DNA of 64,000 nt from Kiloniellaceae bacterium. GTDB taxonomy: Bacteria; Pseudomonadota; Alphaproteobacteria; Kiloniellales; J153. How positions within the stretch are numbered: position 1 is the stretch's first letter; each line of letters begins with the position of its first letter. The DNA is taken from assembly GCA_021776175.1 (NCBI GenBank), contig JAJFGJ010000018.1:1-64000 (forward strand). The letters are read 5' to 3'. The notes under the pieces were generated by a model. It was not told where the DNA came from and searched no databases. It saw only the letters and a list, made by a program, of their open reading frames with translations. Position numbers and translations under genes: made by a program. Below, in pieces: positions 16,979 through 42,623 of the stretch.

Positions 16979-19153
16979 ATGACCGATAAGACCGACCACC
17001 AGATGCCGGAATATGCGACAGGGCCACGCATTGTCGTTATCGGCGTCGGCGGGGCGGGCGGTAACGCCATCAACAACATGATCGACGCGAAACTTTCCGG
17101 TGTCGAGTTCGCCGCCGCGAATACCGACGCCCAGGCGCTGGGCATGTCGCTGAGCCAGAACCGGATTCAAATGGGGGGGGCTTTAACCCAGGGCTTGGGC
17201 GCCGGGTCCCGGCCCGACATCGGCCGTGCCGCCGCCGAGGAATCCCTGAGCGATGTTTTACGGGCGGTCGAAGATGCCAACATGGTGTTCATCACCGCCG
17301 GCATGGGCGGCGGCACCGGCACCGGCAGCGCCCCGGTCATCGCCAAGGCGGCGCGCGAGGCCGGCATTCTGACCGTCGGCGTCGTGACCAAGCCGTTCCA
17401 TTTCGAGGGCACCCGGCGCATGTCCCTGGCCGAGGCCGGAATCGAGGAAATGGCGGAACACGTCGATACCTTGATTGTGATTCCGAACCAGAACCTGTTT
17501 CGCGTCGCCAATGAGAAGACCACCTTCGCCGACGCCTTCAAGATGGCCGACGATGTGCTGCACGCGGGCGTTCGCGGGGTCACGGACCTGATGGTGACGC
17601 CGGGTCTGATCAATCTCGATTTCGCCGACGTGCGCGCCGTGATGACCGAAATGGGCAAGGCCATCATGGGCAGCGGCGAGGCCGAGGGAGAGAACCGGGC
17701 GCTGGAGGCGGCCGAGGCCGCGATCTCCAACCCCTTGCTCGACGAAATCTCCATGAAGGGCGCGCGCGGTGTTCTCATCAACATCACCGGCGGCATGGAT
17801 TTGACCTTGTTCGAGATCGACCAGGCGGCGAACCGCATCCGCGACGAGGTCGACCCCGACGCCAATATTATCTTCGGCTCTACCTTCAACGAGGACTTGG
17901 CCGGCCGCATGCGTGTATCGCTGGTCGCCGCCGGCATCGATGCGGAGGAGGGCGCGGAAGATCGCGACGGACGCTCCAAGCGCCCGATCGTCAGCCTCTA
18001 TTCGGACCGGGCCGAGGCCGGAGCGCGCGACATCGCCAGCGCGGCCGAGGTCGTGCATGCCGACCCTCCCGCCGAGGTTGAAGCCCCCGGCGACTCGACA
18101 GACGGCCAGGAGCCACACGCCGATGACCGGGACGGGGATACCGCACCGGCGCCACGGCCCTCCGCCCCCGTGTTTCCTTTCCGCGCCCGCGCGCGCGATC
18201 TCAAGGGCACGGAGTCGCCAAGCGCCACCATCGGCTCGGCTCAATCTTCGGTATCGCCCTCGCTGGTCGTGGACCGGGCACCCGAGGCCGAGCAAGCGGA
18301 CACGCGCGACGAGCTTCGGGTTTGGTCGGGCCCCAAGAGCGAGCCGGACCGCGACACCCGCCCCGAAGCCGAAACCGAAGATAGCTTCGATGAGGAGCCC
18401 GCGTTGGACGCCCCGGATCAAGGCGGGACCACCGCCGCGCGGGTATCCGAGGCCGATGCGGGGACGCCGCCCGCGGCCAACGGCCAAGACGGGGACTTGC
18501 CCAAGGGACCGGCGCTGGTTCTCGACACGCCCGTAGGGATTTCCCAGAAAAGTCCGGCGGTACCGGCGGGTGTTCAAGAAGGCACCCCCGCCAACACGCA
18601 TTCCGGCGGTGAGGAAAAGATTAAAAAATCCGGCGGCTTCTTTTCCTGGATCTCCAGCGGCGGGGGCGGTGCTCAATCGGAGGATCTGTTCAAGAAAGCG
18701 GACCGCTATTATCACGGCCAAGGGGTTCGCAAGAACCTGGAACTCGCTCTTAAATCCTACGTGAAGGCGGCGGAAGCCGGCCATCCAGGAGCGCAGAACC
18801 GTGTCGGCTGGATGTACGAGAAGGGCGAGGGCGTCAAGGTCGATCATAACGAGGCCGCCAAGTGGTACCTCAAGGCGGCCGAGCAGGGTTATGTCAACGC
18901 CATGAACGACCTCGGCTATATGTACCGTCAAGGTTGGGGGGTGGCGCAAAGCCACGAGGATGCCCTGCGCTGGTTCGAACGGGCGGCGGAGAAATACGAT
19001 AGTTACGCCGAGTACAATATGGGCCAGATGTACGAAAACGGCTGGGGCGTGGAACTAGATATGGAAGAGGCGGTGCGCTGGTTCCGCCGCTCCGCCGCGC
19101 GCGGCCACGAATGGGCCGCCAAGCGCCTAGAGGAACTCGGCGTCGCGACCTGA
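16979..19153 (+). CDS. FtsZ-like GTPase fused to C-terminal Sel1 repeats
   Basis: A 724-residue protein. Residues ~15-322 are a complete FtsZ tubulin-fold core: [13 protein letters not shown], the tubulin signature GMGGGTGTG at 108-116, and the catalytic T7 loop NLDFADVR starting at Asn212. A ~245-residue acidic, Pro/Ala-rich linker follows. At ~568-724 there are four 36-residue Sel1-like repeats ([19 protein letters not shown] is typical). I find no canonical FtsZ tail peptide (DIPAFLRRQ-like) that binds FtsA and ZipA. The linker ends with a short hydrophobic motif, [11 protein letters not shown]. It lies outside any dcw cluster. It is probably a second, specialised FtsZ that scaffolds partners through its Sel1 repeats, but it could be the only FtsZ. 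Its cellular role is unproven. Confidence 0.85.
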
Positions 19154-19219: not shown

Positions 19220-19534
19220 ATGCCTAACTATATTATTGCCTATCACGGTGGAAATAAGCCCGACAGCCCCGAGGAGGGAGCCAAGCACATGGCGAAATGG
19301 AAAGCCTGGATTGGCGGCCTCGGCGATGCCGCGGTCAATCCCGGCACTCCCTTGGGTAAGTCCAAGACCGTAAGTTCCGATGGGGTGTCGGACGGCGGTG
19401 GGTCGAATCCCTTGTCCGGGTTTTCTATCGTGAAAGCCGGCGACATGGATGCCGTTCTCGAAATAGCGAAGGAATGCCCATTCCTCGACCTCGGCGGCAC
19501 ACTAGAAGTCGCGGAAGTGATGCAAATGCCGTGA
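19220..19534 (+). CDS. YCII-related domain protein
   Basis: A 104-residue ferredoxin-like-fold protein. It starts with the strand MPNYIIAYHGG and ends with LGGTLEVAEVMQMP. In between is SGFSIVKAGDMDAVLEIAKECPFL, the usual YCII/DGPF pattern (sigma-factor-associated or lactam-like small enzymes of mostly unknown function). A good ribosome site (GGGAGGAAA) precedes the ATG. It is the last host gene before the element at dif; its stop is 50 bp from the left XerC arm. Confidence 0.75.
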   Translation: MPNYIIAYHGGNKPDSPEEGAKHMAKWKAWIGGLGDAAVNPGTPLGKSKTVSSDGVSDGGGSNPLSGFSIVKAGDMDAVLEIAKECPFLDLGGTLEVAEVMQMP

Positions 19535-19584: not shown

Positions 19585-19612
19585 AATGCGCATAATTTAT
19601 ATAAAAACAAGG
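19585..19612 (+). other. attL: dif-like hybrid XerCD site
   Basis: XerC arm AATGCGCATAA (19585-19595) and centre TTTATA (19596-19601) match the dif pattern; E. coli has GGTGCGCATAA and TGTATA. The XerD-arm position reads TAAAAACAAGG and is degenerate. This is expected for a left junction where the host XerC arm joins the element's own divergent arm. The 15-bp core GCGCATAATTTATAT (19588-19602) is repeated exactly at 23829-23843. Confidence 0.75.
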
Positions 19613-19614
19613 GC

Positions 19615-20316
19615 TTATACTCCATTTCGGCTATTGGGCGTGGCTCGATGGCCGGATTGAGAAGGGGCCGGACTGGCGAAGTTTCCGAGTTCGGACATTG
19701 CCTGTTTCGCTCTTCTCGCGACGGTCTTGGAGGTCAAACCGACTTCATCGGCGATCTGCCCGTAGCTCGATCCTTCCGAGTAAAGGCGAATTATTCGGCG
19801 ATCTATGAAACGGTCGTACCGAACTTTCCGCCATCGTCGATGGTGTTGAACGAGTGCGAGGATGCTGGTTACCGGCTGCGCGAAATGCTCCGCAGCGGCA
19901 CGAACAGCGCCGCTATGAGTACGGTATTCGCTTTCGTGCGTTCGCAGCCAACGTTCCGCGAGGCGACCAAGATGGCGCATTTCAGTTGTTTGTTTTTTGA
20001 TCTGCGTTTTTTTGCTCGACTCGGGAGAGCTATCTTGCTTGGCATCGTTGGCGGCAACGCCAAGCCCCGTCGATTTTACGAAGCAAGCTGCGGTATTACA
20101 GAGGCTCAGTAGCTCGCTAGAGAACTTGGCTGCAAGGCGCTCCGGGTACGCCTCAAATGTGACACGCACCTTGCCGGAGGCTTTGACAGATAGATGTAGC
20201 GGGTCTCCAGGCGCGCCGCCTGACAAGCTGGAATAAGGCCGATCCGGCCGCTCCGATTGGTTTGGCGAGTCGGCGGAGTCGGTGTATCCTAGCTGCGCAG
20301 ATTCACTCCGGCTCAT
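19615..20316 (-). CDS. Helix-turn-helix protein of the dif-integrated element
   Basis: A ~233-residue protein whose C-terminal third is an HTH: RRIIRLYSEGSSYGQIADEVGLTSKTVARRAKQAM (about 180-214), like sigma-70 region 4 or resolvase-type recognition helices. The N-terminal part is low-complexity, and the middle contains a Lys-rich segment and a stretch compatible with DNA binding. I chose ATG 20316 (MSRSES), which has GAGGG just upstream and overlaps the preceding gene by 14 bp; the in-frame alternative at 20424 overlaps it more. It ends three bases from the left dif-like site, so it is the last gene of the element. Function unknown. Confidence 0.55.
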   Translation of the reverse strand: MSRSESAQLGYTDSADSPNQSERPDRPYSSLSGGAPGDPLHLSVKASGKVRVTFEAYPERLAAKFSSELLSLCNTAACFVKSTGLGVAANDAKQDSSPESSKKTQIKKQTTEMRHLGRLAERWLRTHESEYRTHSGAVRAAAEHFAQPVTSILALVQHHRRWRKVRYDRFIDRRIIRLYSEGSSYGQIADEVGLTSKTVARRAKQAMSELGNFASPAPSQSGHRATPNSRNGV

Positions 20317-20818
20317 CCCTCGATCCTTCTGTGGTCGGGTGATGATCGGAAGCTGTTGGTGCAGCTTCGGTGTGTTTGCTTGATGATGGGCGGCTCGGGT
20401 CAGATTGATCCGGGCCGCTTTCAAGTATTGCTCTAATTGCCGTCACATCCGCCCGTAGCTGGTCTTCTGGTTCGAGAAAACGCGGACCCATTGCGTCCGG
20501 CCAACCATGTTCCTTGGCAAGAAGAAAATCTTGCTGAAAAAAATGATTCGCAAATCGAAAATCAATGTCACTGTCAATGCTGTCGTTTAAGGGTAAGCTG
20601 TCGAAAGCTCTCCGAGGATCGATATCTAATAATCGGCAAATTGTTGCTGCCTTTATAAGCGACGGATACTTTCCACCTTCTTCGCCTGCCTTCTCGTATC
20701 GGATCAATGAATTGGAAGGGATGCCGGCAAACTCAGCCAACTTAGTGCGCGACAAGCCTTTCCGCTCTCGTGCCATCCGGATTTGTCTGCCGAAGGTTTG
20801 TTTTGGTGCGAATGTCAT
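20303..20818 (-). CDS. XRE-family regulator of the dif-integrated element
   Basis: A 171-residue protein with an N-terminal Cro/CI-type HTH: FGRQIRMARERKGLSRTKLAEFAGIPSNSLIRYEKAGEE (about 9-48), then ATICRLLDIDP. The rest is polar, with a Ser/Pro/His-rich tail and no recognised domain. ATG 20818 (MTFAPK) is preferred to an ATG at 20920, because the extra residues would run across the palindromic operator-like site at 20840-20857. It is a good candidate for the repressor that controls replication of the element, by analogy with RstR. That role is inference. Confidence 0.7.
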   Translation of the reverse strand: MTFAPKQTFGRQIRMARERKGLSRTKLAEFAGIPSNSLIRYEKAGEEGGKYPSLIKAATICRLLDIDPRRAFDSLPLNDSIDSDIDFRFANHFFQQDFLLAKEHGWPDAMGPRFLEPEDQLRADVTAIRAILESGPDQSDPSRPSSSKHTEAAPTASDHHPTTEGSRDEPE

Positions 20819-20830
20819 ATCCACAGCGTT

Positions 20831-20870
20831 CTTACGTCGGGTAAGAAAACCCTTACCGTATAATTGACGT
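20831..20870. promoter_or_regulatory. Palindromic operator-like site upstream of the XRE gene
   Basis: GGTAAG (20840-20845) and CTTACC (20852-20857) form a perfect 6-bp inverted repeat around AAAACC. A further half-site CTTAC lies at 20831-20835, and an AT-rich block TATAATTGACG lies at 20859-20869. The site is 22 bp upstream of the XRE start codon, as expected for autoregulation. I cannot assign a firm -35/-10 pair. Confidence 0.45.
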
Positions 20871-20968
20871 AACGTGCAAGAGAAATCGCTACATGTTGAG
20901 ATGGAGGTCAAGAGGGACACCAGCCGTTGGGTCGGCGTCCCTCCCTATGTAGCCCGAACATAGGAACC

Positions 20969-21784
20969 TCATCGGTTCGGAAACTTGCCTTCGTTCGCAA
21001 GGTCCGGGCCGCGTCCCGTAACAGCCAATTGCCGAAGGATCGGACGAATCTTCGGGACCAAGACCGCATGCTCGCCCCAGCCGGAAAAAAGTGGTGGTTC
21101 CTCAAGGTTGCGTTCCGACGCCAGACGATCCGCCAGCTTGTGGAGCGCCGAAAGGTCGATCTCGAATAGATCGCGACCTAAGATCGCGGTATCGACGATC
21201 CGGTTTCCAATTTCGACGCATTGGGCTTCGGCCTGGTCTGCCTTTTCCTCGAAGCCATCCTCGGCTTCCCGCGCGGTTGGAAGCGCCTTTCGGAACAGGT
21301 CGCGCTCACGTGCTGTCGTGACGAGCTCGTCAGGCTCCAGATTGCACAGAAGACGAGCGGCATCTTCGGCAAGCGCCAGGGGCCGCCGTACAACGCCCTC
21401 GAAATCTCCGACGCGCATTGTATCGAGTTGATCGAGAATCCTTCCCACTTGATCGATGGGATCGACTTCGGGCATCGCCACCGGCTGAGGTTCTGCCGAT
21501 TCCTGGACGGTACGAACGGGCCTCTCGGCAGACGGTGCCGGAAAGTTCTCGCCATCCATTCCGACCAACTCTTGAATTGGCAATTCTAGCGCTCGGCAGA
21601 GAACAACAAGCCGGGAAGCGGACGGTTCCTGTGTCCCGTATTCAAACTTCTCAATTGCCTTATGGGGGATCCCGGTATGTTTGGAGAGTTTTGCCCGTGA
21701 CAGCCCAGCGGACTCCCGGGCCTCGCGAATGTGCGCCCCGAGAACTTTTGGATTGATGGCTGTTTCTGAGGTGACGGTCTGCAT
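20969..21784 (-). CDS. Second XRE-family HTH protein of the dif-integrated element
   Basis: 271 residues. The N-terminal Cro/CI-type HTH spans about 14-72: LGAHIREARESAGLSRAKLSKHTGIPHKAIEKFEYGTQEPSASRL, then LCRALELPIQELVG. The C-terminal ~190 residues are helical and charged, with no domain I recognise. It begins 12 bp after the Rep stop on the same strand, so it is probably co-transcribed with rep and may set its copy number or block transcription. The 150-bp gap to the next XRE gene suggests a separate promoter there. Confidence 0.65.
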   Translation of the reverse strand: MQTVTSETAINPKVLGAHIREARESAGLSRAKLSKHTGIPHKAIEKFEYGTQEPSASRLVVLCRALELPIQELVGMDGENFPAPSAERPVRTVQESAEPQPVAMPEVDPIDQVGRILDQLDTMRVGDFEGVVRRPLALAEDAARLLCNLEPDELVTTARERDLFRKALPTAREAEDGFEEKADQAEAQCVEIGNRIVDTAILGRDLFEIDLSALHKLADRLASERNLEEPPLFSGWGEHAVLVPKIRPILRQLAVTGRGPDLANEGKFPNR

Positions 21785-21796
21785 TGTCTTTTCCTT

Positions 21797-23227
21797 TCAA
21801 GAAGAGAAATTGAACGTTTCCCAAGCCCTTGATTGGCAAGGGTAAGGGACATCCCAGGGAAGTTCCCTAGAAACTATTGGAACGTAACGTAAGGGCTCCA
21901 ATGAGGGGGCAGGGGAGACGCGGCAGCGGATGCCGAGCCCCCGCAACACGTCGAGAAGGCCTTGAAGGCCATTTTCCTCGTAAGCGGATATCACCTCTGC
22001 GGTTTTGCCGAGGCGAACAACCGCGTTGAACAGGTCGCGATCCATCGATGCGACGTGGGTTTCTTGTGGGGTAGGGGGCGTTGCTAGTTCCTCATCGGGA
22101 ACCTCTGGCTCTGCCAAGTAGCGTTCCCGAAGCCCCGGCTCCTGGACCGGCGCGCCGTCACCGTCGTTACCGGTCCAACCCCGGCTCCAGGTGAGTTGCC
22201 GTGCTCCCTTGAAGGCCCGTGCGTATTCCCGGAATAACTCCCGATCCGGCCGGGAGCCTGAACGAGCGAAGTCCTCAAGGATTTGCCAAGGCGTCCGGCC
22301 ACCATTCCCAGCGCGTTTGACGTGAGCCTTGGTAAGCTCCAGGGACACGCCCCATTTCGATACATAGTCCGCGGCTCCCGCCGCCATGTTGACGGGCGAG
22401 AACGTGAAAGCATCCTCGGAACATTGTCCGTAGCCGAGGCGTGCAATCGCTCTGGCCCATCGATCGAAAAGCCACGAACCGAAGGCCAGGCACGCCGGAT
22501 CGGTAACGCCAGGACGGAATAGAATCAGTATGTGCAGATGAGGGTGCCAACCGTTTTGGCCGTGGGTGACTTCCAAGGCGCGGATATCGCCGATCCAGCC
22601 GTAGCCCGCGCGCGCCGCGATCCAGGACTTGCCAGATTTAACCCGCCGCCAGGCCTCTGTGACGGCCCTGCGCAGATCGCGGCATTTCTGGAAGCGATGA
22701 TGAGGAATGGTGAGGGTGGCCATGTAGGCGCGTCCTACGGCATTCTCATGGCCGCTCAAGACCGTCTCGATATCAGCCCGCCGTCCTTCGGTGATGCGCA
22801 CGGCGCAGACAGGGCAGGTCCAAACGGAGCTACAGGTTTCGATCCCGCCAAGGTGAGCCTGGCCTTCGTGCATGTGGAAGGTGACAACCTGGCCCACGGC
22901 CTTTTGACCGCAGGTCGCCACGCGCTGCTCTGGGAGGATACAACCGGCCGCACGGCGTAGGCCGTGCCGGTGCTGCCGGGGTGAAACACTGCTTGCGTGT
23001 CTATCAAGGGAAGGGGACCGTTCGGGCTTGCCTGTAGGCGCCCTACCGGTTGAGAAAGCGGTTTCGCCTGACGGCGAGGTAGCATCGGCTTTGAGAGCGC
23101 GGACAGGGAGAAGGCGGGCCGAGGGCGGGATAGTACCCGAGGCCTCGGCTCCGCGCTCCCAAAGTCCCGCCGAGGCTACCACCTCTCGGCGGGCGAAACT
23201 CTCTTGCCCTCCGGCCCGAACTCTCAT
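21797..23227 (-). CDS. Rolling-circle replication initiator (Rep_1-like HUH endonuclease)
   Basis: A 476-residue initiator. After a ~100-residue low-complexity leader comes the zinc-like motif CSSVWTCPVC (131-140 region), typical of plasmid Rep of the pUB110/pC194 group. The HUH motif GWHPHLHILILF follows near 226, with the metal His residues, and then the nicking-tyrosine motif AADYVSKWG near 285. Such proteins nick the double-strand origin and stay linked to the 5' end. ATG 23227 overlaps the stop of the upstream gene (ATGA), which supports this long start. The last coding bases hold a CCCTTG-ATTGG-CAAGGG hairpin (21826-21842). The protein implies an episomal stage for the element. Confidence 0.78.
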   Translation of the reverse strand: MRVRAGGQESFARREVVASAGLWERGAEASGTIPPSARLLPVRALKADATSPSGETAFSTGRAPTGKPERSPSLDRHASSVSPRQHRHGLRRAAGCILPEQRVATCGQKAVGQVVTFHMHEGQAHLGGIETCSSVWTCPVCAVRITEGRRADIETVLSGHENAVGRAYMATLTIPHHRFQKCRDLRRAVTEAWRRVKSGKSWIAARAGYGWIGDIRALEVTHGQNGWHPHLHILILFRPGVTDPACLAFGSWLFDRWARAIARLGYGQCSEDAFTFSPVNMAAGAADYVSKWGVSLELTKAHVKRAGNGGRTPWQILEDFARSGSRPDRELFREYARAFKGARQLTWSRGWTGNDGDGAPVQEPGLRERYLAEPEVPDEELATPPTPQETHVASMDRDLFNAVVRLGKTAEVISAYEENGLQGLLDVLRGLGIRCRVSPAPSLEPLRYVPIVSRELPWDVPYPCQSRAWETFNFSS

Positions 23228-23751
23228 GATCGATCTCGCGAGTGAAGTTCGCGGGCCTGGTCGCGTAGTTGGCGGAGGACTTTGGCAACTGTCCCGGTTG
23301 AGACACCTTCGGCCTTGGCGATCTCGCGGTTCCGCTTACCGGCACGGGATGCCGCGAAAATACGTTTGTCGCGGGCCTTTCGTTCGGCTTTCGTAGCGAT
23401 CCGAGCATAGGTTTCGGCCATAAATGCCGAGAGGTTGCGAGAAGCTGCCTCAGCCCTGACAGCCTCGACACGAGACAGCCCCTCGGCTCGCCTTGCATTG
23501 ATTCCGGCGCTGATTTTGGAAGCGAGCGCACTTGACGCCTTGATCCGTTCTTCTGCATCGTTTCTCGCAGCTTTGGCCTGGCGCTTCCGCTGGGCCTCTG
23601 CGCGCTTGTAGGGTTCGATGTTACCAACGACGCTGCTGAGGAGTTCTTCGAGCGCGTCCCATGTGAGTCGGATCGTCAAACGGCACTGATTGCCGTCCGG
23701 CTCTGCAATTATGGAAACGCCTTCGGATATGGGGAGGTTCAGGTCATACAT
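23224..23751 (-). CDS. Basic HTH protein encoded upstream of rep
   Basis: A 175-residue protein that I do not assign to a family. The N-terminal ~45 residues form a short beta-rich part (RLTIRLTWDALEELL). A long Arg/Lys/Ala-rich helical segment follows, and the C-terminus is an HTH: AASRAGKRNREIAKAEGVSTGTVAKVLRQLR (about 132-162), like HTH_23/resolvase-type. It is translationally coupled to rep by an ATGA overlap, so it may be a replication accessory or copy-control protein. First gene of the element, 75 bp inside the right dif site. Confidence 0.6.
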   Translation of the reverse strand: MYDLNLPISEGVSIIAEPDGNQCRLTIRLTWDALEELLSSVVGNIEPYKRAEAQRKRQAKAARNDAEERIKASSALASKISAGINARRAEGLSRVEAVRAEAASRNLSAFMAETYARIATKAERKARDKRIFAASRAGKRNREIAKAEGVSTGTVAKVLRQLRDQARELHSRDRS

Positions 23752-23782
23752 GGCCCGAACCCCTTGAGAGTGCGCACACTTC

Positions 23783-23822
23783 GCGGCGGGGAGCCGCTAG
23801 GCTATGGGATCGAACATCCCAT
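23783..23822. other. Two hairpins between the element's first gene and dif
   Basis: GCGGC-GGGGA-GCCGC (23783-23797) and the perfect ATGGGAT-CGAAC-ATCCCAT (23804-23822) lie side by side within the 75 bp between the first gene and the right dif site. Adjacent hairpins are typical of rolling-circle double- or single-strand origins and of XerCD accessory regions. I see no pC194-type CTTGATA nick site here, so an origin role is only a suggestion. Confidence 0.4.
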
Positions 23823-23825
23823 GAA

Positions 23826-23853
23826 GGCGCGCATAATTTATATTATGGAAAAT
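23826..23853 (+). other. dif: dif / attR: XerCD recombination site
   Basis: XerC arm GGCGCGCATAA (23826-23836), centre TTTATA (23837-23842) and XerD arm TTATGGAAAAT (23843-23853) differ from E. coli dif at only four of 28 positions (my count). The CATAA and TTATG inner arms form the diagnostic palindrome around the 6-bp centre. XerC/XerD resolve chromosome dimers here under FtsK control at the terminus. As the junction of an IMEX, the XerD arm would be the host's and the XerC arm the element's. Confidence 0.82.
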
Positions 23854-23990
23854 ACTGACTATCGCGGGCAAAGGTATAAGCCAGGGCTTCGTTTGCGTTT
23901 TCTATAAGATTAGTAGCGCCATACCTGGTTTTCTTCGCGTGAGTGCGCGCCATGGCATCTATCCGGCATGCACCTTGCGTTTCCTCCCGC

Positions 23991-24773
23991 TCAGGTGTCG
24001 ATCACGACCGTCAGTCCGTCGTATCCGGGTTCGACACCTGGCGGACACTTGGCGCGGATGGTCTCATAGTCGGCTTGATGGTTCAGGTGGGTCAGGATCG
24101 CGCGCTTCGGTTTTACCCGGGCGATCCATTCCAATGCCAGGTCCAAGTGCGCATGAGTCGGATGCGGGGTTTCGCGCAGGCAATCCACGATCCAGACCTC
24201 GATGCCGGCGAGCGCGGCGAAGGCCGCTTCGTCCAGGCTCTTGACGTCGGTCGAATACGCCACGGGCCCGAAACGCAGGCCGAGCGAAGTCTCCGGCCCA
24301 TGACCCTGGATAAAAGGCACGACGTGGAGCGCGCCGGCATGGAAAGGCCCATCGATGATCCGGTCGCGCATTTGCGGCGTGTACAGGCTTTTGGGATCGC
24401 AGGTCGAGGCAAAGATATAGGGAAAGCGCCCGCTTAGATCGCCGTGGGTGCTGGCGTCCATATAGGCGTCGATGGGTCCGCCGTGGGTCCGGGCCATGGC
24501 CCGCAATTCATCGATTCCGTGGGCGTGGTCGGCATGGGCGTGGGTGTAGATCACGGCGTCGAGGTCGCGGACCCCGGCATCGAGAAGCTGCACCCGCAGG
24601 TCCGGCGAGGTATCGACCAGGGCGGTCGTGCCGCCGTCTTCAACCAGGATCGAGACCCGCCGGCGGCGGTTTTTCGGGTTTTCAGGGTCGCAGTCGCCCC
24701 AGTTACCGCCCGGTGTGCCATCGGCTAATGGAATCCCGCTGGAGCCGCCGCAGCCTAGAATGGTGACCTTCAT
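23991..24773 (-). CDS. MBL-fold metallohydrolase (PhnP-like)
   Basis: A 260-residue metallo-beta-lactamase-fold phosphodiesterase-like protein. MKVTILGCGGSSGIPLADG is the N-terminal signature of the group. THAHADHAHGIDELR (about 77-91) is the HxHxDH metal motif, and a later His lies in AILTHLNHQAD. PhnP-type relatives hydrolyse cyclic phosphodiesters; the substrate here is unknown. Lies downstream of tatD on the same strand, the usual alphaproteobacterial order, with a repeat-containing gap between. Confidence 0.82.
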   Translation of the reverse strand: MKVTILGCGGSSGIPLADGTPGGNWGDCDPENPKNRRRRVSILVEDGGTTALVDTSPDLRVQLLDAGVRDLDAVIYTHAHADHAHGIDELRAMARTHGGPIDAYMDASTHGDLSGRFPYIFASTCDPKSLYTPQMRDRIIDGPFHAGALHVVPFIQGHGPETSLGLRFGPVAYSTDVKSLDEAAFAALAGIEVWIVDCLRETPHPTHAHLDLALEWIARVKPKRAILTHLNHQADYETIRAKCPPGVEPGYDGLTVVIDT

Positions 24774-24806
24774 GGCGCGGCGGTCCTGAGTTTCCGGCGG
24801 CGCCGC

Positions 24807-33964: not shown

Positions 33965-34088
33965 TCGATCACTCGGGCTAGATTCTCGGAAATATGTGGC
34001 ACGGCAGCGGTTTAACGCGCAATGCCCATGCCGCCGCGCGGATGGTTGATTTTGCCTGCCCTCCCCCCAAGGATTCATTAACCGACTT

Positions 34089-34901
34089 TCAGGAGCCCGG
34101 CTTGGGGGCCGGATAAAGCGTGGCGGTCCAGCCCATGACCCGATAGGCGGCCAGTCCGGCCCATTCATGCAGACCCAGGCCGAGCCGGTGCAAGCCGCCG
34201 GCCAAGCTGAAACCGAGCCTGCCCCGCCCCGGCCCCGAGGTCTGGTAATCGACCGGGTATGGCGCCACGTTCCATCCGGCGGCGCGGAACACCCCCATCG
34301 CGCGCGGCATGTGAAAGGCCGACGTAACCAGGAGCCAGACCCCGCCCGGCGGCGCCCCGGCCAGGCGCTTCGAGTAGACGGCGTTTTCGTGGGTGTTGCG
34401 CGAATCGCGCTCGAGCAGCACGCGCCCGGGATCGATTCCCAAATCGGCCATGATCTCAGGCACGAAGTCGCTTTCCCGGATGTCCTGATCGCGCGGAGAG
34501 CCGGAACCGCCGGTGAAGATCAGACGCGCATCCGGGAAGCGGCGCGCCAAGTCGGCGAAGGCGATCATCCGCTCCGCGTATTCGCCGAGTTGCGCCGTGC
34601 CCCGGTCGGCGGAGCGGCGCAGATGAAGGGCGCCGCCAAGCGCAATAATACCCGCCACCCTTTCGGGCAAGACCGACGGCGCGGGAAACCGCTCCTCCAA
34701 AGGCACGGTCACCCACGACCCCATGGGCAGGATGGCCACGGCCAGCATAACGCCAAGCGCCGCTCCAAGAACAATCCGGCCAAGACGGCGAACCCGCGCC
34801 CAGGGCGCGAAGCCCGCCAGGTATCCGCTCAGCAAACCAAGCACCAGCAGATTGCCGGGGCTGAACAAGAACCAGAATATCTTCGACAAGATGAAGGCCA
34901 C
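34089..34901 (-). CDS. YdcF/ElyC-family DUF218 membrane protein
   Basis: A 270-residue protein with two N-terminal membrane helices (about 5-31 and 41-63), then a periplasmic DUF218 domain: GIIALGGALHLRRSADRG, LIFTGGSGSPRDQDI, ERDSRNTHENAVYS and VTSAFHMPRAMGVFR. ElyC/YdcF proteins influence envelope polysaccharide or lipid-carrier metabolism, consistent with the nearby murein genes; biochemical activity is not settled. ATG 34901 opens just before the first helix. It ends 124 bp before the transglycosylase start on the same strand. Confidence 0.82.
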   Translation of the reverse strand: MAFILSKIFWFLFSPGNLLVLGLLSGYLAGFAPWARVRRLGRIVLGAALGVMLAVAILPMGSWVTVPLEERFPAPSVLPERVAGIIALGGALHLRRSADRGTAQLGEYAERMIAFADLARRFPDARLIFTGGSGSPRDQDIRESDFVPEIMADLGIDPGRVLLERDSRNTHENAVYSKRLAGAPPGGVWLLVTSAFHMPRAMGVFRAAGWNVAPYPVDYQTSGPGRGRLGFSLAGGLHRLGLGLHEWAGLAAYRVMGWTATLYPAPKPGS

Positions 34902-35041
34902 CCACGGATTCTAGAATTACCCCGCGAGTCGGAACAACGCCCGCGCCACCGATTGGCGGGCGGCGGTCTTTGAGCTATTCCCTAATTTCTGGACTGATTC
35001 TCACCTAGATTAAGCTACTCACCGGGCCTGCCGATCGGGTT

Positions 35042-35480
35042 TCATGTTCCACTCGTTACGCTATCGGTCCCGCCGCGAGTGTGCGCGAGATAGGCCAAGC
35101 GCCCAGAGGCGATGTCGTAACTCGCAGCCGTGCCGACGCCGTTGGGGAAAGTAATCCCGGCCGGGCGGTCGGCGGCGGCGTAGGTCAGATCGATGTCCCC
35201 ACCCACCGGCGGGGTCAACTTGGTCAAGCGCCCAAGCGGATCGTAGGCATAGCCGTTGGTGCCGCCCCAAGGCCCGGCATCGTCGCAGAGGATAACGCGG
35301 TCGCCAAGAGGCGCGGGCTACGTCCAAACAGTCTCTAATCGTGTGCCGTATTGCAAGACCTGACCCCGCTATCGCGCAGGCCGTAGTAGCCATAGGCGAA
35401 GCTGGCGAGATCGGCCCCGCCGCGAGTGTGGGCGAGGTTGGCCAGGCGCTCGAGATTGGCGATCGTCTATCGGTACGAGC
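35042..35480 (-). pseudogene. RHS/YD-repeat protein remnants
   Basis: Two decayed pieces. At 35042-35311 the minus strand reads DRVILCDDAGPWGG, then GYAYDPLGRLTKLTPPVGG and SYDIASGRLAYLAHTRGG, and stops. At 35369-35480 it reads IANLERLANLAHTRGGADL and then FAYGYYGLRDSG. These are YD/RHS repeats. Both contain the same LAHTRGG segment, so they are duplicated parts of one ancestor. The second piece ends exactly at the repeat at 35348-35365. They are remnants of an RHS gene related to the one at 37.6-38.9 kb. Confidence 0.75.
35348..35365. repeat. 18-bp breakpoint repeat, copy 1
   Basis: ATTGCAAGACCTGACCCC lies at the exact edge of the RHS fragment. A copy with one mismatch (ATTGCAAGACATGACCCC) is at 38878-38895, at the N-terminal break of the other RHS remnant. 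Motifs of this kind are often found next to RAYT and IS200-like elements. Confidence 0.7.
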
Positions 35481-35490
35481 GGACTCTCAG

Positions 35491-35946
35491 TTATCTATGA
35501 GATTTCAGCAAACTCTCGAAATTCTCAGAAAGGCGAAGATTGAATTTGGCCCTATCAAGAGAAACAGTATTCAACTCTGAAGAAAGAGGAATGCCGTTCG
35601 GCGATACAAGGCGATACTCAACCTGGTCGAACGGCTCCTGGTCTGTGGAAAGCGCGTGAAAGACACATACGCTGGGGCCTCTATGCTCAAGCACTTCAAT
35701 CCAAGAATAGGAGCCGTAGTCCTCAAGTAACATGTCATAGGCTGGGATCTTGAACTCATCCAAAAAACCTTCTGGGAATTCCCAACGTAAGCTCTCTATC
35801 ACCAGCGCGTCATATAACGCCGTCGCAATATTGTCCCAATCATCGTAAGCATCTGGCCTTCGCCATGGAATGTCTGCCGCTTGAACCGCAGGCAAGACTC
35901 CTAGGAGTGCGTCGCGAAAATTTCCTATAACACTTGCTGCAGTCAT
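35491..35946 (-). CDS. Orphan protein in the RHS region, possible immunity protein
   Basis: A 151-residue protein of no family I recognise, acidic and soluble-looking (WDNIATALYDALVIESLRWEF, LLEDYGSYSWIEVLEHRG). It is visibly AT-richer than the flanking housekeeping genes. It lies between RHS remnants on the same strand, which is where polymorphic-toxin loci keep cognate or orphan immunity genes. ATG 35946 has a purine-rich AAGTGAAGA upstream; GTG 35955 adds three residues. The immunity role is inference from position only. Confidence 0.5.
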   Translation of the reverse strand: MTAASVIGNFRDALLGVLPAVQAADIPWRRPDAYDDWDNIATALYDALVIESLRWEFPEGFLDEFKIPAYDMLLEDYGSYSWIEVLEHRGPSVCVFHALSTDQEPFDQVEYRLVSPNGIPLSSELNTVSLDRAKFNLRLSENFESLLKSHR

Positions 35947-36083
35947 TTTCTTCACTTGAGTACCTCATTGAGTAGATCAAGTTCCTCGGGAGTTGGTGGC
36001 CGGTCTGGATCGCGGCCTCGACCGGGTCTGATGGGTACCGTTCTTTTTTTAGTTATGTCAAGAATCACTCGGCCCCTATTGGT

Positions 36084-36374
36084 AAAAGGGGACGCTACCC
36101 TTTTTGATTATGCTGCTTTTTCGGGCGTCCAGGCGGCCGGTACCGGAGCGCACGCCCCGTCAGCTTCTCCAGCGTCCGGATGAATTTCTCCGCGTAGTCC
36201 TTCAGCCATGCCAGATAGGCGTGGCGGTCGTCATCGGTAAAGAACACCTGGTCGCGGCGATTGCCCCGCTGGGTGACATGATGGGGCACACCGGCGAAGA
36301 CGGTTCGGGCCAAGCGGGGCATGCGCGGAAGCTACACGGAGGGCATCGAAAAATAATGGGTAGCGTCCCCTTTT
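36084..36374. mobile_element. 291-bp RAYT-derived mini-element with 17-bp inverted ends
   Basis: AAAAGGGGACGCTACCC (36084-36100) and its exact reverse complement GGGTAGCGTCCCCTTTT (36358-36374) bound the segment. Inside is an internally deleted REP-associated tyrosine transposase frame. The GGGGACGCTACCC motif is commonly found beside such transposases. The unit looks like a non-autonomous derivative that a full-length RAYT elsewhere could mobilise. Confidence 0.7.
36095..36322 (-). pseudogene. RAYT (Y1_Tnp, IS200-like) transposase with internal deletion
   Basis: A 75-residue frame. Residues 1-47 are a typical RAYT N-terminus (MPRLARTVFAGVPHHVTQRG, then the segment after the HUH-type strand, TDDDRHAYLAWLKDYAEKF). 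Residues 48-75 are its C-terminal tail (LEKLTGRALRYRPPGRPKKQ). A normal protein is about 200-300 residues, so the catalytic Tyr region is missing and the two ends are joined in frame. It cannot transpose by itself. Confidence 0.75.
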
Positions 36375-36420
36375 TTCCAAGTCGATTTAGTCAGACACTG
36401 CCCGCTGGAGTGTGACTGCT

Positions 36421-37425
36421 TCAATGCCAAAGCCAAGACACCACCAGGAGTCCAGCAAGGATACCCCTTTTCGCGACCCTTCTACCCAACAGTGCGCGAG
36501 CGGTACGCTCCCATGTACTCGAAGTAGTATTGGAAGTTGTTTTCTTGTTTTTTCTCGCTTTCGAAGAGAGTAAAGATAAATATCTCTTGGATAAGAACTG
36601 TGTTGCGCTTAACAGATAGAGGCCCATGAAAAATAAATCAAAAATCTTTGGTTGAAACGACAATTCAACAATATTGATATCGAGAATAGCCCAACGAGCA
36701 TCCCACGCGAAGATGTTAGCTGCCACCGAAATCAAAAGTCCATAAATCATTCCCAGAGTACCGACAAACTCTGCAAAAAGTAGAATGATAAACTTAGACG
36801 CATCAAAATATGATCCACCTACAAGAGCCCGACGCGTTTTCTTTTCGTAAATTGCCATTTCATTGTCCGAGACAGGCTTTTTTGCGGGATCATCCACGAG
36901 CTCACCTGGACGCAGTCCACCAGTAATCTCATACACATGCCGCGCCGTTTCCGGCACTTGTTCGACTTCGACGGCCAGGTAGCGTAGCAAGCGAAACGCC
37001 TTATCAATATCGGGGCCGCAATCCAATCCGAGATTTGTCTGTTCATCGGACGGCGCCTCGGACACCGGCCAAGAAATTGCCTGGTCCCGGCAGAACGATT
37101 CTAACAATTTGAGCTTGGGGCTGTTGAGATAGTCATCGGGCATCATGAAACTTATCCCGATACTTCCTTTCGCTCGAATGTATTTGTCGAATCGAATCAC
37201 CCAATCGTATTTCGGAAACGAGGCGATTAGACTTGCACCATTGACTCCGGACCTGAGTAGGAATCGAAGAGAAGGCTTGAGTTCCGAGATATCGCCTTCC
37301 TGAATCAATTCGCGGTTTGGCTTCCCAGTGACCTTATCCACTCTAAACAAGAACATTGCTGTCATTGACAGGGCAATGAAAACGGCAAAATACGCATATA
37401 AATCTGCATCATAGATAGTGATCAT
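36421..37425 (-). CDS. Membrane protein of unknown function in the RHS region
   Basis: A 334-residue protein that I do not recognise. An N-terminal helix (about 8-27, FAVFIALSMTAMFLFRV) precedes a ~180-residue soluble part containing ASFPKYDWVIRFDKYIRAKG and GISFMMPDDYLNS. Two or three helices follow (about 212-245 FIILLFAEFVGTLGMIYGLL, about 262-285) and a final short one. AT-richer than its neighbours. It lies 223 bp after the RHS C-terminal domain on the same strand, where an immunity protein to a membrane-acting toxin would sit; that is a guess. ATG 37425 is preferred over TTG 37455. Confidence 0.5.
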   Translation of the reverse strand: MITIYDADLYAYFAVFIALSMTAMFLFRVDKVTGKPNRELIQEGDISELKPSLRFLLRSGVNGASLIASFPKYDWVIRFDKYIRAKGSIGISFMMPDDYLNSPKLKLLESFCRDQAISWPVSEAPSDEQTNLGLDCGPDIDKAFRLLRYLAVEVEQVPETARHVYEITGGLRPGELVDDPAKKPVSDNEMAIYEKKTRRALVGGSYFDASKFIILLFAEFVGTLGMIYGLLISVAANIFAWDARWAILDINIVELSFQPKIFDLFFMGLYLLSATQFLSKRYLSLLSSKARKNKKTTSNTTSSTWERTARALLGRRVAKRGILAGLLVVSWLWH

Positions 37426-37648
37426 GATTTCAGCACCATGTTGATTTGCCCTCAAGTCACAAATTTGATAACGATTTCACATTGCATTTCTTGCCGGAAG
37501 AAAGCCAGTCCAAGTTACGTTGTAAGTCAAATATCCCGCTGTATGCGCACCAAAGTATGTTTGCGCCTCCGTCGATACTAATCTACATCTGAATTGGAAT
37601 CGCGTTTAGAGCGCAGCGCAATTCAACACTCTGCAATCTTTGTTTCCA

Positions 37649-37977
37649 TTATAATCCAATAGCAATCTTAAAGGCCTGTGCTGTTAACTGACCGTTAAAA
37701 AATGCTTTAGTTCTCTTAGGAATGCCTCTGACATCGTCTATTGTATCTCCTTTGTCAGGGATGAACTCGAGCGCGAAACCAAGAGCGAAATCCGACACAT
37801 CTTTAAAATCTTTCTTCTCCGCAAATTTCTGGAATTTCTGAAAATTAATCTGAGCCTGGACAATTTTTTTGTTGATAAAGGAGAATATGGAGCGGGTCGC
37901 AAGGCCTACGGTGGCGGCTCCTGGAATTGCTTTCAGAAAGGCGCCACCAGCGGCGAGAAATCTCTCTAAGGAGGGGG
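37649..37977 (-). pseudogene. RHS C-terminal variable (toxin-like) domain, out of frame
   Basis: Downstream of the RHS core stop, the minus strand is open for ~109 codons in another frame. It starts SLERFLAAGGAFLKAIPGAA, continues with VGLATRSIFSFINKKIVQAQ and FAEKKDFKDVSDFALGFALE, and ends LTAQAFKIAIGL, TAA at 37649-37651. No start codon of its own is evident. The core frame joins this one if one C is added to the C6 run at 37973-37978 (G6 on +). It looks like the variable tip domain of a polymorphic toxin. I recognise no known toxin fold. Confidence 0.6.
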
Positions 37978-38423
37978 GAGTTTTCCGCTAGGATCGGTAA
38001 GATTTACCGGACTGTTGAACACATACCGATACGCATTGGCATCACCGCTCTCCAATCCAATCGGATCCTCGCTCAAGAACCGCCCGGTCGCCGGGTTGTA
38101 ATACCGTGCGCGGTAAAAATGCAGCCCGCTTTCGGGATCGAATTCGCGGGCGGTGTAGGTGTAGGGATTGGCGACGGTTTCCGAACGCACTTCGAAGTTG
38201 CCGAAGGCATCGTAGTCGTAGCTGTTGACCACGGTCCCGGCGGCGTTGGTGAGCTTGCGCACCGAGCCCAGGAAATCCGTTTGATAGAAATAACTCTGGC
38301 CGCTGCGTTCCATGGCCAGGGGCTGATCGACATTTTCGCCGTGGCTGTAGCGCGCGGTCAGGGCATTTATGCCGTCGTACTCCAGGACGATATTGTCATC
38401 GTCGTAGACGTAGCGGACTATGT
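37966..38423 (-). pseudogene. RHS core domain, frameshifted at both ends
   Basis: Reads VRYVYDDDNIVLEYDG, then FYQTDFLGSVRKLTNAAG, YDYDAFGNFEVRSETV and the RHS core signature ARYYNPATGRFLSEDPIGL, to NSPVNLTDPSGKLPPP and TAG. The N-terminal frame (EKDVT*) is off by one base: adding one G in the GTGACATAG stretch near 38424 gives EKDVDIVRYVYDDDN, the expected RHS sequence. The C-terminal end is off by one C at 37973-37978. An ATG at 38313 could start a 115-residue fragment, but the real gene is longer. Confidence 0.75.
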
Positions 38424-38872
38424 CACGTCCTTCTCGATCCGGCGTCCATCGGCATCGTAGCGATAGGTGGCGGAACCGCCGCCGGGCATGTCGATGCGCA
38501 CCAGGCGGTTACGTACATCCCAAGTGTAGGTGGTGATGTCGGTGGGGGTCGCCCGGTCGGCCTTGGTTTTGAGGTTGCCGTTGGCGTCGTAATCGTAAGA
38601 GAAGGTATCGTCTTCGAGCAGACGGTTGGCGGCGTCGGTCAAGTGCGCGCCCGAGAGGTGGGAGACGGTGCGGTTGCCTTCTTCGTCGTAAGCATAACTC
38701 TCGGGCGCGCCCGCGAAGCCGCCTGCGGCCTTGACGGTCTTATCGATCAGGTTGCCGTTGGTGTCGTAGCCATAGCAGAAGCTATCGTCCTCGGTGAGGC
38801 GGTTGGCCGCGCTGATGCGGACCGGGCGACCTTTCTCGATCTTTACGTCGGAGCTGCGGCGCCAGCATAAGT
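38418..38872 (-). pseudogene. RHS YD-repeat region, 5'-truncated
   Basis: Four or more YD repeats (CYGYDTNGNLIDKTV, YAYDEEGNRTVSHLSG, YDYDANGNLKTKAD, YRYDADGRRIEKDV), then TGA/TAG by frameshift. Homology starts at about VRISAANRLTEDDSF. Upstream the frame continues to a weak start at 39014 through sequence that is not RHS, directly after the repeat at 38878-38895. The bulk of the large RHS shell is therefore gone, and what remains is the last repeats, the core and the tip domain. Confidence 0.75.
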
Positions 38873-38877
38873 GCATG

Positions 38878-38895
38878 ATTGCAAGACATGACCCC
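38878..38895. repeat. 18-bp breakpoint repeat, copy 2
   Basis: ATTGCAAGACATGACCCC, differing by one base from 35348-35365. It sits at the 5' break of the RHS remnant. Another GACCTG-like partial copy follows near 38921-38926. The pair suggests that a mobile unit or recombination between copies removed the rest of the RHS gene. Confidence 0.65.
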
Positions 38896-39351
38896 AAGAG
38901 TGCAAGAGTGCCAAGAGTAAGACCTGCGTGGGCCTGGATCTGAGCCTGGGTCTCGATGCCGAACCCTGTACTCTTGCTCCTCACCCCTCGCGGCGCGGAG
39001 GGCATAAATATCAATATCCGGAATCATATTCGCGGGTGTGGAAATTCATAGTATCCCGCGTGGGAATTATACGAATCGCATACTTTACCATGTGGAAAAT
39101 CCCCGGCGCGGGGTCCGGCAATTCCGCGGCTTCGTTTTCCACCGCCTTTGCATTGCGTGCGCCGCGCCGGGCGCTAGTCTTGAACCGCTTAGGGTGCGGG
39201 CGCTTGGCTTCGCGCCGGTGTTTGGGAAAAGGGAGGTCCGCCATGTCCCGGCCCGGCTTGGTTACATGGATGCCCGCTTGGCAGGTAAAAGACCGGCTCG
39301 CACGCGGCCCTTCCAAGGCGCGCGCCGGGCCGTCTCGCGGCCGTCCTGTAA

Positions 39352-39382
39352 ATTCCCTGCTCGGCAGGGAATAACAGGGAAT
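39352..39382. repeat. AGGGAAT palindrome
   Basis: ATTCCCTGC and GCAGGGAAT flank TCG (39352-39372), and a third half-unit AACAGGGAAT follows at 39373-39382. This type of CAGGGAAT repeat recurs between genes in alphaproteobacterial genomes near tRNA-linked insertions. Function unknown. Confidence 0.6.
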
Positions 39383-39544
39383 GCGATGGACTCCAGCGCC
39401 AGGCAAGGGAACGGATGGGAAACGATGTTTGCACCCTCACCAAAGTCTAGGTCACATACCCATTAAACCGTCGTCCCGGGCACGACGTTCCTCCAAGCCA
39501 CTTGCCCCACGAAGGCGGGGGATGGCTTGGCAAGGAAAGTCAGT

Positions 39545-39622
39545 GATCCGGGATCCATCGTGCCCCATGCTGGGCTTTGGACACGCGGATAAATGGATCC
39601 CGGATCAAGTCCGGGATGACGA
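39545..39622. repeat. REP-like palindromic block
   Basis: GATCCGGGATCCA (39545-39557) and, in inverted form, TGGATCCCGGATCAAGTCC followed by GGGATGACG (39594-39622) form a palindromic block of the widespread alphaproteobacterial type, similar in style to 1106-1190. Confidence 0.65.
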
Positions 39623-39632
39623 TTTTTTGCTT

Positions 39633-39649
39633 ATGAGTCGGTGTCCTAG
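39633..39649. repeat. IS5-terminus-like remnant
   Basis: ATGAGTCGGTGTCCTAG differs from the transposase 3' end at 122-138 (ATGAGTCGGTGACCTAG) at one base. In frame it would read YESVS-stop, like the transposase terminus. No other part of an IS is visible here, so it may be a solo end left by excision or deletion. Confidence 0.5.
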
Positions 39650-39720
39650 GGTGGCGATTGGGTGGCAATTCGGACTTTGCTACCCAGCCCGGATTTGCTA
39701 AGTGCTTGATTCTCTATGCC

Positions 39721-39810
39721 GGATGGGTGCCCGAGCGGTTGAAGGGACCGGTCTTGAAAACCGGCAGGCGTTAACGCGTCTCGTGGGTTCGAATCCCACC
39801 CCATCCGCCA
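39721..39810 (+). tRNA. tRNA-Ser (anticodon UGA)
   Basis: A 90-nt class II tRNA. Acceptor GGATGGG (39721-39727) pairs with CCCATCC (39800-39806), followed by G and encoded CCA (39808-39810). Anticodon stem CCGGT/ACCGG encloses loop CTTGAAA with TGA at 39755-39757. A variable arm (GGCGTTAACGCGTC) of serine type and the T-loop GGTTCGAATCC are present. It decodes UCA and related serine codons. Confidence 0.97.
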
Positions 39811-39941
39811 TCCTGTTTCGTGCGCAAAGAGCCGGTACGATGCCATCTGGGCGGCCGGCATTCACGCGGTGCTCGACGAAATCGTCGGCGCCGCCAGTGA
39901 CGCTCTTTAGCGCCTAGCCACCCGCGAAGCGTCAGGGCCCG

Positions 39942-41757: not shown

Positions 41758-42449
41758 CCGTCGGTCAAAAGCGCACGGGTCTCGGCGACCCCCACGGCCC
41801 AAACCGCCTCCATATCTTTATCGGAGCGCTGGTAACGCCCGCCCATGTTGCCATCGCCCGCTATGGCCCGAATTTGTTCCGGATTGAGACTCTGCAGGCT
41901 GCCCATATCGACCAGGTCCTTGGCGCCATCAGGCATGTCGGCCCCGTCCAGCCGGTTCCAGGCGAAGTTTTCAAGCCAGGACGCGTGGGAAGCGATCTTG
42001 TCGATCTCACGGATAGCGGCGGCGAATTTTGGGGCGGCATACCAGTTGTGAAACAGGATCCGAATGTCTGGCTTGGTCATCATCCATTGGCGCGCGTAGT
42101 TGGCCGCCGGCATGTTGCCGCCGTGGCCGTTGACCATGAGAATGCGCCGGAACCCGGCATGGGCGAGGCTGTCGAGAATATCGCCGATCACCCCCAGATA
42201 GGTCTCCATGCGCAAGGTGACGGTGCCGGGGAACGCGGTCCAGTGATGGGCTAGTCCATAGGACACGGCGGGGAACACCGGAATGCCCAGGGGCGCGGCG
42301 GCGTCCACGGCTACCTTTTCAGACAGAATGCTGTCGGTCGATAGGCTCAAATAGGCGTGTTGCTCGGTCGATCCCAGCGGCACGACGCAGCGATCGTCCG
42401 ATTTCAGGTACTCTTCGACCTGCATCCAGCTTGTGTCCGAGATCTTCAA
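41748..42449 (-). CDS. Creatininase-family amidohydrolase
   Basis: A 233-residue member of the creatininase/MftE/FAPy-deformylase family. Visible are VPLGSTEQHAYLSLSTDSI (metal Glu and His), HHWTAFPGTVTL and VNGHGGN. The third metal region reads SHASWLENFAW, where most relatives have HAGE(x)ETS, so the site is partly altered. It is divergent from the ABC importer at 42.6-48.3 kb (174 bp apart), and its product may act on the imported compound. Substrate unknown. Confidence 0.82.
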   Translation of the reverse strand: MKISDTSWMQVEEYLKSDDRCVVPLGSTEQHAYLSLSTDSILSEKVAVDAAAPLGIPVFPAVSYGLAHHWTAFPGTVTLRMETYLGVIGDILDSLAHAGFRRILMVNGHGGNMPAANYARQWMMTKPDIRILFHNWYAAPKFAAAIREIDKIASHASWLENFAWNRLDGADMPDGAKDLVDMGSLQSLNPEQIRAIAGDGNMGGRYQRSDKDMEAVWAVGVAETRALLTDGWR

Positions 42450-42576: not shown

Positions 42577-42623
42577 TCCAGGTAATTTCGATACTTATAA
42601 CAAGTGCAGGGTAGGATAGAACT

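What the first reader, a model, noticed from the sequence alone, without database searches (positions are those of the whole stretch)
19585..23853. A rolling-circle element integrated at the chromosomal dif site
A 15-bp direct repeat (GCGCATAATTTATAT) at 19588 and 23829 flanks a 4,241-bp unit. The right copy extends into a full dif match (XerC arm GGCGCGCATAA, centre TTTATA, XerD arm TTATGGAAAAT; 4 differences from E. coli dif by my count). The left copy has the XerC arm and centre only. The unit encodes an HUH Rep, two XRE regulators and two HTH proteins, and no integrase. This is the structure expected of an IMEX, known from CTX/TLC/RS1 in Vibrio, here in an alphaproteobacterium with a plasmid-type Rep. 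I know of no described example of this exact kind.
Basis: partly seen in the sequence, partly recalled or inferred. Interest (0 to 1): 0.93.

Follow-up and report, generated by a model that had tools for sequence, protein, structure and literature searches.

The report
Integrase-free mini-element docked at dif
A 4.2-kb DNA element with a predicted rolling-circle replication gene and no integrase gene sits inside the chromosome dimer-resolution site (dif) of an alphaproteobacterium, likely put there by the host's own XerC/XerD enzymes, and in a gene tree its replication gene groups with those of tailless-virus prophages found at dif or dif-like sites of related bacteria.

Summary
A half-dif (19585-19601) and the genome's only full dif (23826-23853) flank 4,241 bp carrying a five-gene operon, HTH-R, Rep_1 (HUH), XRE1, XRE2, HTH-L, with no integrase. 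Two of three same-genus genomes show the unoccupied site. The same operon sits in the same half-dif/full-dif arrangement in a second alphaproteobacterial family: complete in two genomes, right end only in a third, with a sister genome empty. Four other relatives carry a tyrosine integrase instead, three of them beside a tRNA with duplicated att. The anatomy (XerC arm and centre kept, XerD arm missing on the element side, no virion genes) is that of TLC-type IMEX. Xer catalysis, excision and the circular form are inferred. Best filed as a new variant of the IMEX kind; the bold reading, a TLC-like satellite of tailless dif phages, is not excluded.

The parts
19585..19601 (+). left half-dif: XerC arm AATGCGCATAA plus centre TTTATA; no XerD arm follows (attL)
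19615..20316 (-). HTH-L: 233-aa protein with C-terminal HTH, next to the half-dif; occupies the position of xis+integrase in tRNA-integrated relatives; candidate Xer accessory factor (inference)
   Evidence: (only itself found, 636 candidates scored)
20303..20920 (-). XRE2, Cro/CI-type HTH regulator
   Evidence: 43% to Denitrobaculum L039
20969..21784 (-). XRE1, 271-aa XRE regulator, marker of the element family
21797..23227 (-). Rep, PF01446 Rep_1; HUH motif HPHLH and conserved YVxKW tyrosine motif; first ~80 codons overlap a conserved structured DNA block
22980..23010 (-). candidate double-strand origin: CCCTTGATAGACACGCAAGCAGTGTTTCACC; CTTGATAnACACGCAA shared by five elements of the family (lies inside the rep frame)
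   Evidence: 5 of 13 loci searched; likeness to pC194/pUB110-type nick core recalled
23060..23202 (-). conserved DNA block with large imperfect inverted repeat (origin-type structure, inference)
   Evidence: z -3.3
23224..23751 (-). HTH-R: 175-aa protein with weak C-terminal HTH matches, first gene of the operon, next to the full dif; PM2-like prophages L034, L053 and L086 also have an HTH gene within 0.3 kb of their dif or dif-like site
23804..23822 (.). palindrome ATGGGATCGAACATCCCAT, element side, 3 bp from the XerC arm; a 10-bp-arm repeat at the same place in L108, a shorter one in L077 by eye; likely operator (inference)
23826..23853 (+). full dif GGCGCGCATAA TTTATA TTATGGAAAAT (attR; the only dif found in the genome)

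Best explanation
The 4.2-kb unit is an integrase-free element that most likely integrates into dif with the host's XerC/XerD recombinases in the TLC manner and is predicted to replicate as a rolling circle with its own HUH Rep. Shown: its ends joined as a circle would carry a XerC arm and the dif centre but no XerD arm; joining the chromosome flanks gives one dif; the integrated form has a half-dif at one end and a full dif at the other; the site is unoccupied in sister genomes; the same operon in the same arrangement occurs at dif in a second family. Inferred: XerCD carry out the reaction, probably XerD first because the centre is fully shared; the restored dif keeps dimer resolution working so the insertion is tolerated; excision by the reverse reaction gives a circle that Rep nicks at the CTTGATA site; XRE1/XRE2 repress the operon; an HTH protein, most likely HTH-L, may help Xer act without FtsK.
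For: Repeat, full dif and half-dif. Flank comparison: the FtsZ-like gene, dif and the MBL gene lie together without the element in 6 of 8 same-family genomes (G002, G003, G004, G005, G007, G008); in G006 the contig ends just past dif; in G001 a prophage lies on the XerD side; the 8 loci as first fetched gave no Rep, XRE1, XRE2 or HTH-L hit at E<=0.01 (the G001 prophage Rep lies just outside that stretch). Joined flanks read AATGCGCATAATTTATATTATGGAAAAT. Independent replicates: G433 (L077, half-dif 11014, full dif 6041, 4,973 bp) and G462 (L100, half-dif 7979, full dif 13351) carry HTH-R, Rep (51-52% to the window's), XRE1, XRE2, HTH-L and no hit to two related integrases; G464 shows the right end; G463 is empty. 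Integrase-bearing relatives: L039 at tRNA-Pro (42-bp att), L076 at tRNA-Ala (51 bp), L078 at tRNA-Val (19 bp), L079 with an integrase match but no tRNA found. Rep HUH and Tyr motifs; shared origin-like motif. TLC and GGI att polarity in reviews PMC4246890 and PMC5357621 (passages).
Against: No reads, no circular form and no Xer assay were available. XerC, XerD and FtsK genes were not looked for in this genome. GC skew is not informative at dif. The outer XerC-arm bases do not tell which arm is the host's. HTH-L of the window found only itself, its likeness to HTH-L of L077 is weak, its confident fold is a generic LuxR/NarL-type HTH with no match at E<=0.001, and extra HTH parts also occur in integrase-bearing relatives (L078, L079). 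The origin motif was found in 5 of 13 loci; it is absent from L040, L076, L079 and from the prophages L034, L053, L086, L101, and it lies in coding sequence, so protein conservation could explain part of it. The family is rare: 6 of 385 class genomes for XRE1, own included.
Confidence: 0.85

Rival explanations
1. A capsid-less satellite of PM2-like tailless phages: same dif-hijacking trick and kindred Rep, mobilised inside virions of a helper prophage at the other side of dif. Compatible with the main explanation but adds helper-dependent transfer.
For: Rep clade with Reps of prophages at dif or dif-like sites 99/98; sister G001 carries a PM2-like prophage (P2_N/P2_C coat, ATPase, Rep_1 44.5% identical) on the XerD side of the same dif; genus g130 has both kinds in different species, G432 and G161; HTH genes near dif in both kinds.
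Against: No genome with both at one dif was seen; no packaging signal known; Rep identity is only 44%; the origin motif of the mini-elements is not in the prophages; no search for a coat gene elsewhere in G000 was run; integrase-bearing relatives sit at tRNAs.
Confidence: 0.3
2. A former integrase-type element (like L039) that lost xis and integrase and is now a fixed passenger at dif.
For: XRE1 groups with L039 (91/95) and 91 bp at the start of rep are 87% identical to L039 in DNA.
Against: One end is a full dif and the other an exact half-dif; all five ORFs are open; the same dif form recurs in another family with 80-96% identical HTH-R, Rep, XRE1 and HTH-L between two species; a tRNA integrase would not be expected to target dif.
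Confidence: 0.1
3. Assembly artefact or chance half-dif.
For: Draft genome of 39 contigs.
Against: 0 matches in 100 shuffles; one contig spans it; the same arrangement occurs in L077, from a 5.46-Mb contig, and in L100.
Confidence: 0.02

Closest known systems
TLC-type IMEX (TLC satellite phage of Vibrio cholerae)
   Same: attP with XerC arm and centre but degenerate XerD arm; replication module without morphogenesis genes (PMC4246890 passages)
   Different: Alphaproteobacterial host; Rep_1 Rep kin to those of PM2-like prophages; two XRE and two HTH genes; relation to the TLC replication protein and to XafT not tested
Gonococcal genomic island (GGI)
   Same: IMEX whose own site keeps XerC arm and centre and diverges at the XerD arm (PMC5357621 passages)
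   Different: 57 kb with type IV secretion genes; no such genes here
PM2-like / Jorvik-like tailless prophages using dif or dif-like sites
   Same: Dif or dif-like att site; HTH gene near the site in L034, L053 and L086; three of the four I found (L034, L086, L101; not L053) have a Rep_1 of the same clade
   Different: They have coat genes, and those checked have ATPase and cell-wall hydrolase genes; in L086 the repeated part is centre plus XerD arm, so the prophage lies on the other side of dif
Denitrobaculum-type tRNA elements (L039, L076, L078)
   Same: Same operon order HTH-R, Rep, XRE1, XRE2; CTTGATA origin motif in L039 and L078 (not in L076)
   Different: xis plus tyrosine integrase and tRNA att sites instead of HTH-L and dif sites

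Membership tests
IMEX | dif-like site at the ends | tested here: met
IMEX | no integrase of its own | tested here: met
IMEX | insertion at the chromosome's dif, unoccupied site in relatives | tested here: met
IMEX | integration depends on host XerC and XerD | not testable with these tools
   needs mutants or an in vitro assay
TLC-type IMEX | XerC arm and centre shared with dif, XerD arm degenerate | tested here: met
   definition from PMC4246890 passages
TLC-type IMEX | replication module but no morphogenesis genes | tested here: met
TLC-type IMEX | XerD-first strand exchange, own activating factor XafT | not testable with these tools
   the XafT paper is not held; HTH-L is only a candidate
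TLC-type IMEX | packaged by a helper phage | not tested
   no helper search in G000
PF01446 Rep_1 rolling-circle Rep | HUH motif, catalytic Tyr region, score over cut-off | tested here: met
PF01446 Rep_1 rolling-circle Rep | double-strand origin with nick site | tested here: inconclusive
   motif conserved in 5 of 13 loci searched, inside a coding frame; nick core recalled
PM2-like tailless phage | double-jelly-roll coat protein and packaging ATPase | tested here: not met
   absent from the unit
Rolling-circle plasmid integrated by chance | Rep nearest to plasmid Reps | tested here: not met
   (5 plasmid-record rows, chosen from the hits)

The most novel reading that the evidence does not exclude
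Alphaproteobacteria have their own TLC/CTX-like partnership at dif, built on tailless double-jelly-roll viruses instead of filamentous ones: mini-elements dock on the XerC side (XerC arm plus centre), PM2-like helper prophages dock on the XerD side (centre plus XerD arm) with mirror-image half sites, both leave one working dif, share a Rep lineage and dif-adjacent HTH switches, and the mini-element is a satellite packaged by the virus.
Probability: 0.3. Interest if true: 0.86.

Novelty: new variant of a known kind. Interest (0 to 1): 0.64.

Why it matters
It extends TLC-type Xer hijacking to a rolling-circle mini-element of Alphaproteobacteria, in two families, and shows kindred elements using either a tRNA integrase or dif. 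That makes it testable what an element needs to swap its integrase for the host's dimer-resolution machinery. The Rep clade, and the mirror-image half site of a PM2-like prophage at the same dif in a sister species, point to a possible satellite-helper system around tailless viruses.

Tried and rejected
Rejected: plasmid-type Rep; CTX-type attP (a CTX attP needs two inverted sites in folded single-stranded DNA; here one direct half site); defence island (PADLOC gave HTH-part matches to regulators such as RmrA, capH and control proteins for XRE1 and XRE2, one weak CARF match for HTH-R, and no effector); HTH-L as an FtsK-gamma-like activator by fold (only generic LuxR/NarL HTH, none at E<=0.001 in the PDB or viral libraries). 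One origin of the dif mode could not be decided: the XRE1 tree needs two changes, but shuffles were as low in 218 of 500.

Led nowhere: dif pattern in viral contigs, 0 hits; HTH-R against plasmids, no match; tblastn viral scans with Reps gave 3, 1 and 5 remote Reps; a survey for paired GCGCATAATNTATAT found a pair only in G000 among 28 genomes with a match of 372 examined, but the exact pattern misses other dif spellings; a further paper search and one of its papers (no whole-word hit). The frame first taken for the L078 integrase was the wrong one and gave no family; the integrase there rests on tblastn. Likewise L079: Pfam gave no integrase for the frame tested, tblastn did.

Dropped or partial: Rep tree rows were chosen from hits (26 rows), and its output flags long branches, with L034 and L101 meeting; of 158 plasmid records (181 places) 5 were fetched, of 15 phage records one. 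The XRE1 tree left out L040 and L108, whose XRE1 is not held. XRE1 protein search: 13 hits among the 7,999 best candidates, 3 of them used besides those already known; no hit there could be tied to G433, so it is not a full census. Not all dif loci were scanned for a second site: of the 47 relatives with a dif, 19 were fetched as longer stretches and scanned together with 8 short loci, one of them from a genome already counted.
Full report
WHAT IS THERE. Window 19585-19601 reads AATGCGCATAA TTTATA and then TAAAAACAAGG; window 23826-23853 reads GGCGCGCATAA TTTATA TTATGGAAAAT. The 15-mer of the finding occurs twice in the 3.76-Mb genome, both times here, and GCGCATAATNTATA is never found in 100 shuffles of the window. 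The full site is the genome's only match at up to 3 mismatches of the 25-mer; 48 of 58 genomes examined have it, once each except G034. Between the sites five open frames run leftward as one operon: HTH-R 23751-23224, Rep 23227-21797, XRE1 21784-20969, XRE2 20920-20303, HTH-L 20316-19615; hthR/rep and xre2/hthL overlap. GC is 58.2% against 63% in the flanks. Rep is over the Pfam cut-off for Rep_1 and carries HPHLH and YVxKW.

IS IT THE TERMINUS dif? GGGNAGGG octamers (KOPS, recalled) run 8+/0- left and 3+/10- right, and the orientation score over the contig peaks at 23050-24800, which holds dif (Fisher p 0.001; 0.0065 without three inside the element). GC skew is weak and its cumulative maximum is at 41,258. 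So the octamers agree with the claim and the skew is not informative.

EMPTY SITES. The left flank (FtsZ-like gene fused to Sel1 repeats) and right flank (MBL-fold gene) are conserved around dif in the family. Of eight same-family genomes, six show both flanks with a dif and no element (G002, G003, G004, G005, G007, G008), G006 ends just past dif, and G001 has another insertion. The YCII gene 19220-19534 recurs between the FtsZ-like gene and dif in G008 and is taken as host DNA. The joined flanks give one dif.

INDEPENDENT EXAMPLES. XRE1 hits 6 of 385 class genomes at E<=1e-12, own included, 2 of 61 in the window's order at 1e-15, and 2 of 36 in the order of G433 at 1e-10. G433 (L077) has the full dif and, 4,973 bp away, a half-dif AACGCGCATAA TGTATA TTGCTCAGAGG; between them HTH-R, Rep (51% to ours), XRE1, XRE2, HTH-L. 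G462 (L100) has the same, 96% in Rep, 92% in XRE1, 89% in HTH-L and 80% in HTH-R to L077 but only 44% over part of XRE2; G464 starts inside the right end; G463 is empty.

TWO INTEGRATION STRATEGIES. Four relatives carry a tyrosine integrase: L039 (Denitrobaculum tricleocarpae; G018 has it at the same coordinates), L076, L078 and L079. L039 and L076 are integrases by Pfam; L078 and L079 by tblastn to these (49% and 33%). The first three lie at or beside tRNA-Pro, -Ala and -Val with 42-, 51- and 19-bp duplicated att. L079 (its contig length equals that of a Sneathiella record) has no tRNA found and a stop inside XRE1. L040 is a broken cousin. XRE1 and 91 bp at the start of rep of the window are nearest L039, whereas the Rep core is nearest L077/L100, so modules seem to have been exchanged; how often the dif mode arose is open.

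REP AND ORIGIN. In a 26-row tree the Reps of window, L077, L100 and L078 (99/99) join L086, L034 and L101 (99/98), apart from the plasmid, inovirus and other viral Reps included; some rows are long-branched and the output warns about L034 with L101. L034, L053, L086 and L101 encode PM2-type coat proteins (P2_N and P2_C). L053 and L086 lie at the dif of their genomes. L034 lies beside a dif-like site, its far end off the contig; L101 lies between two sites with centre and XerD arm, neither with a consensus XerC arm, in a genome where no dif was found at <=3 mismatches. L053 has another kind of Rep (no Pfam match). G001, in the window's own genus, has its prophage on the XerD side: full dif near the FtsZ-like gene, and at the far end centre plus XerD arm without XerC arm; L053 shows the same order. 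HTH genes lie within 0.3 kb of the site in L034, L053 and L086; the small frame at that place in L101 had no Pfam match. CTTGATAnACACGCAA is conserved in window, L039, L077, L078 and L100, across two Rep cores, as expected of a rolling-circle nick region, but not in the other 8 of 13 loci searched, the prophages among them, and it lies in coding sequence (the core recalled). A conserved block just upstream folds better than all but 1 of 200 shuffles (z -3.3); of 385 class genomes 6 had a match to it, only own and G018 over more than 30 bp.

MECHANISM. By comparison with TLC (PMC4246890 passages) and GGI (PMC5357621 passages), an attP with XerC arm and centre recombines with dif to leave a half-dif and a full dif, which is the anatomy here. 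Xer catalysis, XerD-first order, excision, repression by XRE proteins and an accessory role of HTH-L are inference. The window's HTH-L found only itself in the protein database (636 candidates scored), and its confident fold is a generic HTH, so its role is only suggested by its position.

NOVELTY. IMEX are known, and Xer use by tailless phages has been proposed in print, Alphaproteobacteria included (PMC10589892 passages; PMC9966536 passages; PMC9719478 passages; PMC11630473 passages, which leaves it open because such prophages regularly carry integrase genes). The listings showed no half-dif mini-element of this make-up; they cover open papers only and show at most the top 20. The TLC integration and XafT papers themselves are not held. 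I call it a new variant of a known kind.

Noticed in passing
L086 8395-19264 (G001): PM2-like prophage of about 10.8 kb at the same dif in the window's own genus, on the XerD side, with mirror-image half site (centre plus XerD arm).
   Followed up: partly
L053 3826-14947 (G034), L101 7606-18211 (G161), L034 904-9362: Further PM2-type (P2_N/P2_C) prophages: L053 between two dif copies, L101 between two dif-like sites, L034 beside one; HTH gene near the site in L053 and L034.
   Followed up: partly
window 16979-19153: FtsZ-like protein fused to Sel1 repeats (724 aa), conserved beside dif through the family.
   Followed up: no
L053 14557-14952: A 131-aa frame reads through the second dif of the prophage, so the att site may be part of a coding sequence.
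   Followed up: no
L100 8758-9396 versus L077 9588-10307: XRE2 differs strongly between two otherwise 80-96%-alike elements, as if immunity specificity was swapped.
   Followed up: no
window 34000-40000 and 42000-56000: Stretches of lower GC (about 54% and 58-60%), the first reaching tRNA-Ser 39721-39810; possible further acquired DNA.
   Followed up: no
L078 11213-12262: The HTH-R of this integrase-type element appears to contain two HTH-like modules, as if HTH-R and a second copy were fused.
   Followed up: no
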